From Gulosibacter molinativorax (GTDB taxonomy: Bacteria > Actinomycetota > Actinomycetes > Actinomycetales > Microbacteriaceae): a stretch of 64,000 bases of DNA. A program made the translations under genes and the position numbers. Position 1 is the stretch's first letter. The number at the start of each line of letters is the position of its first letter. The notes under the pieces were generated by a model, which saw only the letters and a list, made by a program, of their open reading frames with translations, searched no databases and was not told the DNA's origin. Of this stretch, positions 56,849 through 59,934 are shown one piece after another. Where the stretch lies: NCBI RefSeq assembly GCF_003010915.2, contig NZ_CP028426.1:3401659-3465658 (forward strand), in the 5' to 3' direction.

Positions 56849-56880
56849 CCGACGGCCGCTTACACAGATTGGACAGCCAG

Positions 56881-57993
56881 ATGGAAGAGAAGGAAATCTA
56901 TAAGGGTCTCGCCGGTGTGCCGGTGGACTACACCGCGATCTCCAAGGTGAACCCCGAGACGAACTCGCTGCTGTACCGCGGTTACCCGGTGCAGGATCTC
57001 GCCGCGAAGCTCAGCTTCGAAGAGGTCGCGCTGCTGCTGTGGAACGGTGAGCTGCCGACGGAGGCAGAGCTCGCCGAATTCGTGGCGGAGGAGCGAGCTG
57101 GCCGTGCGCTTGACGCGACGCTCAAGGGCATCATCGACACGCTGCCGACTGACGGGCACCCGATGGATGTGGTCCGCACCGCCGTTTCGGTGATCGGCGC
57201 ACAGGACCCCGAGACCGAGACGAACACGCCGGAGTCGAACCTCGCGAAGTCGAAGCGACTGTTCGCCGCCCTGCCCGCGGTCGTGGCCTACGACCAGCGT
57301 CGTCGGCGGGGACAGGACGTGGTGGCTCCGCGCGATGACCTCGACTACTCGCAGAACTTCCTATGGATGGCCTTCGGAGAGGAGGCTGCGCCTGAGGTGG
57401 TGGATGCGTTCCGCGTCTCGATGGTGCTGTACGCCGAGCACTCGTTCAACGCATCCACTTTCACCGCCCGCGTGATTGCGTCGACGACCTCGGACCTCTA
57501 CAGCGCTGTCACCGGCGCGATCGGTGCGCTCAAGGGCGCCCTGCATGGTGGCGCGAACGAGGCCGTCATGCATACCTTCGCCGAGATCGGCACCGCCGAG
57601 AACGTCAAGCCATGGCTCGATGACGCGCTCGCGAACAAGAAGAAGATCATGGGCTTCGGCCACCGCGTCTACAAGCACGGCGACTCGCGCGTGCCGACGA
57701 TGCAGGCGGCGATGGAACGGATGATCGCATACTACGACCGCCAGGACATGCTCGATCTCTACCGGACTCTTGCGGCGGAGTTCGTCGAGCGAAAGGGCAT
57801 CCACCCGAACCTCGACTACCCGGCGGGCCCGACGTACCACCTCATGGGCTTCGATACGCCGACTTTCACGCCGCTGTTCGTCGCGTCGCGTGTGACCGGC
57901 TGGACCGCGCACATCATGGAGCAGAACGCGTCGAACGCGCTGATCCGCCCGCTCTCGGTGTACAACGGCCCGGACCAGCGCGAGCTGCCGTAG
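56881..57993 (+). CDS. prpC: 2-methylcitrate synthase
   Basis: A 370-residue short citrate-synthase-family protein. The active-site histidines lie in LKGALHGGANEAVMH (about residues 220-234) and GFGHRVYKHGDSR (about 258-270), and the catalytic Asp region reads PNLDYPAGPTYHLMGF. Bacterial 2-methylcitrate synthases have this length. It condenses propionyl-CoA with oxaloacetate. ATG 56881 is preferred over an in-frame TTG 12 bases earlier. It ends the operon; the tandem repeats and a stem-loop follow. Confidence 0.92.
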   Translation: MEEKEIYKGLAGVPVDYTAISKVNPETNSLLYRGYPVQDLAAKLSFEEVALLLWNGELPTEAELAEFVAEERAGRALDATLKGIIDTLPTDGHPMDVVRTAVSVIGAQDPETETNTPESNLAKSKRLFAALPAVVAYDQRRRRGQDVVAPRDDLDYSQNFLWMAFGEEAAPEVVDAFRVSMVLYAEHSFNASTFTARVIASTTSDLYSAVTGAIGALKGALHGGANEAVMHTFAEIGTAENVKPWLDDALANKKKIMGFGHRVYKHGDSRVPTMQAAMERMIAYYDRQDMLDLYRTLAAEFVERKGIHPNLDYPAGPTYHLMGFDTPTFTPLFVASRVTGWTAHIMEQNASNALIRPLSVYNGPDQRELP

Positions 57994-57999
57994 GTAGTT

Positions 58000-58055
58000 G
58001 CTGCCTGCTGCCTGCTGCCTGCTGCCTGGTGCCTGGTGCCTGGTGCCTGGTGCCT
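58000..58055. repeat. Eight 7-bp tandem repeats (GCTGCCT x4, GGTGCCT x4)
   Basis: Four copies of GCTGCCT (58000-58027) run straight into four copies of GGTGCCT (58028-58055), then GGTACC. It starts 7 bases after the prpC stop. A slippage-prone tract of this kind can vary in copy number between strains. Confidence 0.95.
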
Positions 58056-58134
58056 GGTACCGCGGCGCTGTCGCAGCGCATCCGTCAAGTGCCGGCGCCC
58101 GGGGCAGCAGGTCGGCTGGGAGCGTGACGGCTCG

Positions 58135-58168
58135 GCGCCCGGAGTGGATTTACTTCCACTCCGGGCGC
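58135..58168. terminator. Stem-loop after prpC
   Basis: GCGCCCGGAGTGGA (58135-58148) pairs perfectly with TCCACTCCGGGCGC (58155-58168) around a 6-base loop. It has no long T tail. Confidence 0.7.
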
Positions 58169-58192
58169 GGTTGCGTTCAGGGGTGCGTCAGC

Positions 58193-58640
58193 GGCGCGAA
58201 TATTCAGGCCGAGGGACGGCTGCGGCTTGAAATTTCGGGCTGGGGCGCGACGCTGGCTTGAATATTCATGCTGAGGCACGCTGCTGGTTTGAATTTTCAA
58301 ACCAGGGGGAAGCTGTGGCTTGAAATTTCAAGCCACGAAAATGATGACCTGAAATTTTAAGCCGAGCGGGTGTCACCGAGGGGATATACCCTCCGTGACA
58401 CTCCCTCGGCTTAAGTTTTCAAACCATGAAAACCGTGGTGTGAAAATTCAAGCCGCGACCGGTGGATGGCTTGAAAACTCACGCCGCGATTGGTGCGTGT
58501 CGTGAAAATTCACGCCGCAGTTGGGCGGGGCTTGAAATATCACGCCGCAATTCGGGTGGATGGCTTGAGAATTCAAGCCGCGATTCGGTGAAGGCGTGAA
58601 CCTTCGAGCCAGGGGCTCGCCTGGCGTGAAATCTCACGCC
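58193..58640. repeat. Array of 14 imperfect 18-bp palindromes at about 31-bp steps
   Basis: The unit resembles GGCTTGAAATTTCAAGCC, which occurs perfectly at 58317-58334. Copies start at 58193, 58224, 58255, 58286, 58317, 58346, 58408, 58437, 58468, 58499, 58529, 58562, 58593 and 58623. Steps are 29-33 bp, mostly 31, with one double step (62) occupied by a larger hairpin (GTGTCAC ... GTGACAC, about 58371-58402). Spacers are 11-15 bp and partly alike (GCGATTGGTG type in the right half). The array lies between the convergent prpC and terC genes and ends 10 bp from the terC stop. Confidence 0.95.
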
Positions 58641-58650
58641 GCGTTTACGC

Positions 58651-59934
58651 TCACGCGCGGGCTTCGCCGCCGCCCGGTGCGCCGTTCGCCTCGGTTTCCG
58701 GAGATGCTGACCCATTCACGTCGTTGGCCGAAGCATCCGAGCCGCCATCCGCATTCGAGCCGGTACCCGCGGCCGAGGTGGCGTCCGCAGCGCCTGCATC
58801 CGAGCCGGGGCCTGCATCCGAGCCGCCATCCGCATTCGAGCCGCCAGCCGCATCCGAACCAGAACCAGAACCAGCACCAGCACCAGCAGCCGACGCCGAG
58901 GCAGCTTCCGAGGCAGCCTCAACTTCAGCCGCCGCCGCAGCCGCAGCTTCCTTCCGGTCGGCCGGGCCGCCCTCACGCGAGTAGATAAGGGATGCAATGG
59001 TCGCGATGAGCAGCACGCCGAAGATAAACAGCAGTGAGAACCACGTCGGAATCTCGGGGGCCCACTCGATGGGCTCGCCACCGTTGATCCAAGAGAGTTC
59101 GTTGACGTGCATCGCGTGGAACACTAGCTTGACGCCGATGAAGCCGAGGATGAACGCGATACCCAGGTCGAGGAAGACGAGGCGCGAGAGCATCGCGTCG
59201 AGGAGGAAGTACATCTGGCGCAGACCGAGCAGCGCGAGCGCGTTCGCCATGAACACGAGGTACGGCTCCTGCGTAATGCCGAAGATCGCAGGAATCGAGT
59301 CGAGCGCGAAGAGGATGTCGGTCATCCCAAGCGCGACGACGACGAGCACAAGGGGAGTGAACAGCTTCTTGCCGTTCTCGACGATCGTCCACTTGTCGCC
59401 GTTGTAGCTCTCGGAAGCCGGGATGAACTTGCCGATCTTCGAGACCCACTTCGGCATCTCGGGATCGGATTCGTCGAAGGAGTCGCGGAACTGGCGGATC
59501 GCCATGAATAGCAGCCAAGCGCCGAAAATGTAGAAGACCCACGAGAGCTCGTTGAGGATCCAGGCGCCGGCGATGATGAAGATCGTGCGGAAGACCAGGG
59601 CCATCGCGATCCCGATGAGCAGCGCCTTTTGCTGCGCGAGTTTCGGTACCTTGAAGCCCGTCATGATCATGAGGAAGACAAAGAGGTTGTCGACCGAGAG
59701 CGCTTTTTCAGTCGCGTAACCCGCGATGAAGTCGCCGGCATGCTTCCAGTCCCAGAGCCAGGCAATGATCAGCATGAACACGAACGCCATGGCGACGTAG
59801 AAGAGCGTCCAGAGGCCCGATTCCTTGATCGAGGGAACGTGGGCGTGTTTGACGTGCGAATAGAAGTCAAAGACAAAGAAGCCGACGATTACGGCGACGC
59901 TGATTAGCCAGACCCAAATATCGACATGACCCAT
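58651..59934 (-). CDS. TerC/Alx-family membrane protein with long low-complexity tail
   Basis: A 427-residue protein. Residues 1-325 form a TerC-family transporter with about eight membrane helices and the signature acidic sites GYATEKALSVDNLFVFLMI and DILFALDSIPAIFGIT. This family exports manganese, for example Alx/MntX. The C-terminal 100 residues are Ala/Ser/Gly/Asp-only low complexity (AGAGSGSGSDAAGGSNADGG) and probably disordered cytosolic tail. GGAGG precedes the ATG. A yybP-ykoY-type leader upstream supports manganese control. Confidence 0.9.
   Translation of the reverse strand: MGHVDIWVWLISVAVIVGFFVFDFYSHVKHAHVPSIKESGLWTLFYVAMAFVFMLIIAWLWDWKHAGDFIAGYATEKALSVDNLFVFLMIMTGFKVPKLAQQKALLIGIAMALVFRTIFIIAGAWILNELSWVFYIFGAWLLFMAIRQFRDSFDESDPEMPKWVSKIGKFIPASESYNGDKWTIVENGKKLFTPLVLVVVALGMTDILFALDSIPAIFGITQEPYLVFMANALALLGLRQMYFLLDAMLSRLVFLDLGIAFILGFIGVKLVFHAMHVNELSWINGGEPIEWAPEIPTWFSLLFIFGVLLIATIASLIYSREGGPADRKEAAAAAAAEVEAASEAASASAAGAGAGSGSGSDAAGGSNADGGSDAGPGSDAGAADATSAAGTGSNADGGSDASANDVNGSASPETEANGAPGGGEARA

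What the first reader, a model, noticed from the sequence alone, without database searches (positions are those of the whole stretch)
58193..58640. Helically phased array of 14 palindromes between prpC and terC
Fourteen imperfect 18-bp palindromes recur at steps of mostly 31 bp, close to three helical turns, so every site would face the same side of the DNA. The centre of the array has one double step filled by a larger inverted repeat. Half-sites drift (GGCTTGAA, GGTTTGAA, GGCGTGAA) while dyad symmetry is kept in many units (GGTTTGAA with TTCAAACC; GGCTTGAA with TTCAAGCC), suggesting selection for symmetry. Spacers of 11-15 bp are too short for CRISPR. Possible roles: a multisite protein-binding locus (nucleoid organiser, partition-like or topological insulator between convergent genes), or a run of RNA hairpins protecting both 3' ends. 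I do not know of a described element with this layout.
Basis: seen in the sequence. Interest (0 to 1): 0.8.

Follow-up and report, generated by a model that had tools for sequence, protein, structure and literature searches.

The report
Seven phased DNA-box arrays, one genome
A bacterial chromosome carries seven copies of an elaborate non-coding DNA element, rows of 18-letter symmetric boxes spaced about three helix turns apart around a central inverted repeat, which looks like a docking strip for an unidentified DNA-binding protein and was not found in the related genomes examined.

Summary
The window array (58193-58640) has 14 boxes and a central inverted repeat whose dyad lies 31 bp from both neighbouring box centres. 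The genome holds seven such arrays, all between genes, sharing one layout. Boxes are as alike between arrays (69%) as within them (70%), while 13-bp spacers are near chance between arrays (29% vs 27%): boxes are maintained, spacers are not. Constraint is mirror-symmetric, but the two arms of a box do not covary and G·T equals A·C mismatches, so boxes look like protein half-sites in DNA, not RNA hairpins. The central repeat's arms do match copy by copy. The model found arrays in none of 10 same-genus, 397 other family and 395 other order genomes (samples may overlap; filters strict in the last two). Best reading: a lineage-specific multi-site binding element wrapped by an oligomeric dimer-type protein, working like phased Lrp/AsnC operators. 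Protein and role are unknown; REP/BIME-like selfish DNA is the main rival.

The parts
56869..57993 (+). citrate synthase family gene (prpC-like), left neighbour
   Evidence: Pfam PF00285, E 5.5e-125
58002..58058 (.). TGCCTGG minisatellite left of the array; short-period CTGG minisatellites also lie left of arrays B, C and D
   Evidence: TRF
58135..58168 (.). plain hairpin (14-bp perfect arms), probably the ordinary junction hairpin; long inverted repeats of unrelated sequence were detected at this junction in 4 of 7 relatives
   Evidence: (I23); the role is inferred
58193..58210 (.). box 1
58224..58241 (.). box 2
58255..58272 (.). box 3
58286..58303 (.). box 4
58317..58334 (.). box 5 (perfect 18-bp palindrome)
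58335..58345 (.). A-rich 11-bp inner spacer, left
58346..58363 (.). box 6, inner left
58357..58414 (.). central inverted repeat (dyad 58385/58386), sharing its outer arms with the two inner boxes
   Evidence: (I1)
58408..58425 (.). box 7, inner right
58426..58436 (.). A-rich 11-bp inner spacer, right
58437..58454 (.). box 8
58468..58485 (.). box 9
58499..58516 (.). box 10
58529..58546 (.). box 11
58562..58579 (.). box 12
58593..58610 (.). box 13
58623..58640 (.). box 14
58651..59934 (-). TerC family gene, right neighbour, converging on the array; 10 bp between the last box and its stop codon
   Evidence: Pfam PF03741, E 3.6e-47

Best explanation
The array is one of seven copies of a lineage-specific, non-coding DNA element that serves as a multi-site landing strip for a symmetric (dimeric, probably higher-oligomeric) DNA-binding protein. 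Shown by sequence: each box is two half-sites (about GGCKTGAA) conserved independently of each other, mostly in one helical phase, placed around a long inverted repeat at the same offsets in all seven arrays, while spacers drift. Inferred: dimers on adjacent boxes line up on one face, touch, and wrap or stiffen the DNA, as Lrp/AsnC-type oligomers are described to do on sites two or three turns apart, with the A-rich inner spacers helping the bend and the central inverted repeat forming the organising centre, possibly as a hairpin or cruciform. Inferred and weaker: the nucleoprotein acts as a local boundary at gene junctions (topological or transcriptional barrier). Outer boxes multiply by tandem duplication of 31-bp modules and are then kept by selection for binding.
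For: Seven arrays with one layout; the seventh (E1) was found by a model built without it, E 8.4e-10. Steps over 65 boxes: 31 in 32 of 58, 28-30 in 18, 33 in 1, and 61-63 across the dyad in 7. Boxes 0.689 identical between arrays vs 0.703 within; 13-bp spacers 0.290 between (letters shuffled 0.273, sd 0.005), 0.505 within, 0.633 for adjacent ones: duplication history in the spacers, constraint in the boxes. Mirror-symmetric tolerance: r 0.90 for information over 65 boxes, r 0.82 for non-consensus rates over 51 outer boxes. No arm covariation (376 of 520 vs 376.5; outer boxes 314 of 408 vs 311.7) and G·T = A·C = 35, as expected for half-sites read in DNA. Central arms match copy by copy: 82 vs 66 expected, 26 of 5040 permutations as good; the centre folds better than all 200 shuffles in 6 of 7. 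Short inner spacers are A/T-rich at their centre, 0.77 (n=13) vs 0.32 (n=38), 0 of 20000 permutations. At up to one mismatch the own genome has 31 box sites, all inside six of the arrays, and 0 for the reversed pattern. Precedent for phased wrapping sites: PMC2995911, PMC8707732, PMC10201364 (passages).
Against: No binding protein identified. The genome has 11 AsnC-domain matches (1-8 in each relative; some are two domains of one frame), the nearest about 38 kb from an array. No lone box, at that stringency, that would tie the arrays to a regulator gene. Conservation between arrays could come from gene conversion rather than selection. Boxes were collected by likeness to a symmetric consensus, and weak ones were allowed to shift by one base toward it, which inflates conservation and mirror symmetry. 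Array D lacks a foldable centre (69 of 200 shuffles fold as well) and E1's central arms match poorly. One inner spacer (left of F, 12 bp by my placement) fell in the long class. The boundary role rests only on position: all seven between genes, 4 convergent, 2 tandem, 1 divergent.
Confidence: 0.55

Rival explanations
1. Selfish or mobile intergenic repeat (REP/BIME, REPIN, BOX or MITE-like): a module of about 200 bp (six boxes around a central inverted repeat) spread to seven junctions and then grew by slippage; boxes are kept because they are the recognition sites of the mobilising enzyme.
For: Extra DNA at junctions that are compact in relatives (mrp-tatB: 523 bp here; 22-117 bp in 8 of 10 relatives by tblastn ends, the other 2 not measurable); found only in this genome so far; intergenic; smallest copies 3+3 boxes; tandem 31- and 62-bp growth in array D.
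Against: No near-identical copies: spacers between arrays are near chance, so no recent spread; box arms do not covary as I would expect of REP stem-loops; only seven copies. No transposase was looked for in the whole genome, so this is not excluded.
Confidence: 0.25
2. Neutral, decaying 31-bp minisatellite with no function.
For: TRF detects period-31 repeats in W, B, C and D; adjacent spacers still share 63%; array D trails off into degenerate 31-bp repeats at L014:8648-8825.
Against: Decay alone does not keep boxes at 69% while spacers fall to near chance across seven loci, nor keep the same offsets around a central dyad, nor copy-specific matching arms in the central repeat.
Confidence: 0.07
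3. RNA element: tandem hairpins that stop transcription or protect 3' ends.
For: Perfect boxes can fold (-9.1 kcal/mol) and the window's central repeat folds strongly (-43.3 kcal/mol as RNA); 4 of 7 arrays lie between convergent genes.
Against: Box arms do not covary and G·T and A·C mismatches are equal; 0 terminator-like sites in 57950-58700 (1.4 expected in shuffles); the prpC side already has a strong hairpin at 58135-58168; one array lies between divergent genes; RNA hairpins need no helical phase.
Confidence: 0.06
4. Centromere-like or chromosome-organising site (ParB, MatP or condensin-loading type).
For: Multi-box arrays on one chromosome; phased palindromes suit a spreading or bridging protein.
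Against: If the main contig is a circle, arrays lie about 204, 850, 879, 918-919, 1233 and 1517 kb from dnaA on both arms, not clustered at origin or terminus; not found in 10 relatives that must segregate too.
Confidence: 0.07

Closest known systems
Lrp/AsnC-family multi-site operators
   Same: Imperfect AT-centred palindromes in clusters, centre spacing of two or three helical turns (30-31 bp also reported), same face of the helix, DNA wrapped around oligomers (PMC2995911, PMC8707732, PMC10201364: passages only).
   Different: Those passages describe promoter or operator regions; here 6 to 16 boxes per array in gene gaps, 4 of 7 convergent, around a long inverted repeat; no AsnC-domain gene is linked to them.
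REP/BIME and REPIN elements
   Same: Intergenic palindromic repeats, sometimes in clusters or tandem (PMC3733652 passages; PMC3116915 listing and abstract start only).
   Different: Seven loci instead of high copy number, 31-bp phase, arms not covarying, central repeat with fixed offsets.
BOX elements of pneumococcus (recalled, no call)
   Same: Modular intergenic element with a variable number of inner modules.
   Different: Different layout as I recall it; no phased palindromic boxes.
ParB-parS / Noc / matS sites (recalled, no call)
   Same: Short palindromes bound by a dimer on the chromosome.
   Different: Different motifs, mostly single dispersed sites, origin- or terminus-biased.

Membership tests
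Lrp/AsnC multi-site operator | semi-palindromic AT-centred sites spaced two or three turns apart | tested here: met
Lrp/AsnC multi-site operator | an Lrp/AsnC protein binds the sites | not testable with these tools
   11 AsnC-domain matches in the genome, nearest about 38 kb from an array
Lrp/AsnC multi-site operator | sites at the promoter of a regulated gene | tested here: inconclusive
   4 of 7 arrays (W, E2, C, F) lie between convergent genes and so at no promoter; E1, B and D lie upstream of at least one gene
REP/BIME/REPIN | stem-loop maintained by pairing of the arms | tested here: not met
   no arm covariation in 65 boxes; the central repeat, a different part, does covary
REP/BIME/REPIN | high copy number across intergenic regions | tested here: not met
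   31 box sites at up to 1 mismatch, all in arrays; seven arrays
REP/BIME/REPIN | RAYT (TnpA-REP) transposase in the genome | not tested
CRISPR array | near-identical repeats with spacers of about 25-40 bp (recalled) | tested here: not met
   boxes about 70% alike, spacers 10-15 bp; cas genes were not searched for
Rfam RNA family | covariance-model match above the gathering score | tested here: not met
   57900-58800: 5 matches at E up to 1, all far below their gathering scores
intrinsic terminator | GC hairpin followed by a T run | tested here: not met
   0 found in 57950-58700, both strands

The most novel reading that the evidence does not exclude
A new class of chromosomal nucleoprotein element: a symmetric scaffold (long inverted repeat, A-rich bend sites, phased boxes on both sides) on which a dedicated oligomeric protein builds a wrapped, boundary-like complex at seven gene junctions of one bacterial lineage, two of them flanking a 23S rRNA methylase-like gene.
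Probability: 0.3. Interest if true: 0.85.

Novelty: new variant of a known kind. Interest (0 to 1): 0.62.

Why it matters
It is a compact, repeated, strongly patterned non-coding element with a clear prediction: one protein should bind about 65 boxes in seven arrays. If confirmed it would give a natural, countable system for multi-site DNA wrapping or insulation in a bacterium (an actinobacterium by my inference, since the second contig's best matches are actinobacterial plasmids), and a bait that should pull the protein out directly. If it is selfish DNA instead, it shows how a protein-binding array can be kept while its spacers are replaced.

Tried and rejected
Rfam scan of 57900-58800: only sub-threshold chance-type matches. 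Viral contig scans: 30, 11 and 32 stretches, no such pair in the 73 loci; three contigs with a triple core-like hairpin look unrelated; L350 is a 125-bp tandem repeat. Lone half-matches in G004, G030 and G041 were taken as chance. Core-only hairpins in G004 and G003 have no flanking boxes. Orientation of the centre: best fit flips only F, margins small, no rule drawn. Six literature searches of an open-access library listed no element of this layout; that is the only basis for calling it undescribed.

Sensitivity limits: the sequence-blind detector scores W, B, C, D at 57-89, but the E locus (25.9) and F (32.7) lie within the noise of other DNA (up to 33.5 inside the mrp gene of one relative; 26.7 in 161 unrelated loci; 30.7 in L350), so in the G004 survey (787 kb of about 3.2 Mb, best 20.8, shuffled maximum 22.2) it would have missed small arrays. 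A box matrix on 794 kb of G004 and G010 stretches found no pair of boxes 28-34 bp apart, but only for this box sequence. The family and order model searches used stricter filters and few scored candidates per genome. The array-free junction was examined for W, C and E only; for B, D and F the G004 stretches gave one flank or none.

Full report
OBSERVATION. The window contains 14 boxes of 18 bp at 58193-58640 with steps 31,31,31,31,29,62,29,31,31,30,33,31,30. A sequence-blind score for phased palindromes gives 88.7 with 15 dyads at the array, against 17.1-18.2 in three local shuffles, and period 31 is the best of 18-47. The 62-bp step holds a long inverted repeat whose dyad is 31 bp from both neighbouring box centres, so the order is ...31-31-29-31-dyad-31-29-31-31.... 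Left neighbour is a citrate-synthase-family gene (prpC-like), right neighbour a TerC-family gene, converging.

SEVEN ARRAYS. The window is G000:C1:3401659-3465658 of a 3.50-Mb genome in two contigs. The pattern GGCNTGAANNTTCANGCC with up to one mismatch occurs 31 times, in six clusters only; the reversed control occurs 0 times. A covariance model of the 138-bp centre (R1, built from six arrays) recovered these and a seventh, weaker array at C1:62876-63011 that was not used to build it (E 8.4e-10). Names used here: W (window), E1 and E2 (L011), B (L012), C (L013), D (L014), F (L015). All share the same offsets, within a base or two, around a central inverted repeat with a core such as GAGGTGATATCACCTC or GAGGGTATATCCCCTC. 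I listed 65 boxes, placing weak ones by position and letting each shift by up to one base toward the consensus: W 14, E1 6, E2 6, B 9, C 7, D 16, F 7. Steps were 31 (32 of 58), 29 (9), 30 (5), 28 (4), 33 (1) and 61-63 across the dyad (7).

WHAT IS CONSERVED. Boxes are 0.689 identical between arrays and 0.703 within; 13-bp spacers are 0.290 identical between arrays (0.273 with letters shuffled), 0.505 within arrays and 0.633 between adjacent spacers. So arrays grew by local duplication, spacers lost that memory between arrays, and boxes did not. Tolerance to change is mirror-symmetric across the box (r 0.90 for information over all 65; r 0.82 for non-consensus rate over 51 outer boxes). Yet the two arms do not covary: 376 of 520 cells paired against 376.5 expected (2853 of 5000 shuffles as good; within-array shuffles 377.5, 3258 of 5000), 9 of 18 double changes compensatory, 135 single changes, G·T 35 and A·C 35; outer boxes alone 314 of 408 against 311.7, 1541 of 5000 shuffles as good. 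This is what independent half-sites read in double-stranded DNA would show, and not what RNA stems would show. Caveat: boxes were found by likeness to a symmetric consensus, which raises conservation and symmetry figures.

CENTRE. The arms of the central repeat match copy by copy (82 against 66 expected, 26 of 5040 permutations as good), though E1 matches poorly. As single-stranded DNA the 60-bp centre folds better than all 200 shuffles in 6 of 7 arrays; D does not (69 of 200 as good). The 10-11-bp spacers of the inner steps are A/T-rich at their centre (0.77, n=13, against 0.32 for 38 longer spacers; 0 of 20000 permutations); F's left inner spacer, 12 bp by my placement, was counted with the longer ones. 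Long inverted repeats with unrelated arms were detected at the prpC-terC junction in 4 of the 7 relatives in which that junction was found; the window has such a plain hairpin too, at 58135-58168, besides the array.

CONTEXT. W: prpC-like> <terC-like. E1: dinB-like> then a 23S rRNA adenine methylase-like gene (Pfam RrnaAD; erm-like by my recall)>. E2: that gene> <alpha-amylase-family gene (called treZ in my notes). B: <zinc alcohol dehydrogenase, ACPS-like> (below Pfam's cut-off). C: mrp-like> <tatA/B-like. D: two genes on the minus strand. F: glycerate kinase> <HepT-like (the names mrp, dinB, treZ and capF are mine, without a family call). So 4 of 7 are convergent, 2 tandem, 1 divergent. With dnaA at C1:2610358-2610843 and assuming a circular main contig, the arrays lie about 204 to 1517 kb from dnaA on both arms. 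Short-period CTGG minisatellites lie just left of W, B, C and D; TRF reported none near E or F.

RELATIVES. Ten other same-genus genomes were held. mrp and tatB are neighbours in all 10; the gap between tblastn ends is 22-117 bp in 8 of 10 (two tatB matches stop short), against 523 bp here. prpC and terC are neighbours in 7 of 10. dinB and the amylase-family gene are neighbours in 4 of 10, and in G010 a methylase-like gene (69% identical) sits beside the amylase-family gene with no boxes in the locus. In 47 short loci of relatives (180 kb) and 42 G004/G010 stretches (794 kb) no two boxes lie 28-34 bp apart. R1 found only core-hairpin matches in G004 and G003 within the genus at E up to 0.1, and nothing outside the own genome in 397 other family and 395 other order genomes at E 0.001 with stricter filters; the two samples may overlap. 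Plasmid and phage records: no match. The second contig has no boxes.

MECHANISM. The anatomy fits a dimeric protein that reads each half-site, sits on one face of the helix about every three turns, and assembles on both sides of a dyad. The described proteins that behave most like this are Lrp/AsnC regulators: a review of archaeal members states that sites are clustered and imperfect, spaced two or three turns apart, with DNA wrapped around oligomers (PMC2995911, passages), and another paper mentions 30-31-bp periodicity (PMC8707732, passage). The genome has 11 AsnC-domain matches against 1-8 in each relative, the nearest about 38 kb from an array. I therefore say it works like such operators, and do not file it as one: the protein is unknown, and 4 of 7 arrays are at no promoter. 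A boundary role at gene junctions is my preferred function, at low confidence.

VERDICT. Real, apparently under constraint, multi-copy, and so far seen in one genome; probably a protein-binding scaffold. Function and protein are open. A REP/BIME-like selfish origin remains possible, since no transposase search was run.

Noticed in passing
L011:6846-8453: Two arrays (E1, E2) flank a 23S rRNA adenine methylase-like gene preceded by a short leader-like ORF, in a stretch of lower GC (0.49-0.61 against mostly 0.62-0.70 around it); a 69% identical gene sits beside the same neighbour in G010 without arrays.
   Followed up: partly
window 58002-58058; L012:8255-8335; L013:7828-7989; L014:7928-8031: Short-period CTGG minisatellites lie within about 135 bp of four of the seven arrays, always on the lower-coordinate side; none reported near E or F.
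   Followed up: partly
L185, L188, L189, L193 (prpC-terC junction of relatives): Long near-perfect inverted repeats (25-37 bp arms) of unrelated sequence occupy the same convergent junction in different species, as if symmetry is kept while sequence turns over.
   Followed up: partly
L014:8648-8825: Degenerate 31-bp repeats continue beyond array D, as if boxes there are decaying.
   Followed up: no
L262:18423-19627 and L263:1436-8666 (second contig): A transposase-like gene pair (IS3-like by look, no family call) occurs four times about 3 kb apart, with the gene between copies repeated, on a contig with plasmid-like matches.
   Followed up: no
L015:8612-9656: HepT-like gene (Pfam) with an upstream ORF that looks like a nucleotidyltransferase (no family call), possibly a toxin-antitoxin pair, next to array F.
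   Followed up: no
L013:10683-10971: A separate 104-bp tandem repeat (2.8 copies) between called ORFs.
   Followed up: no
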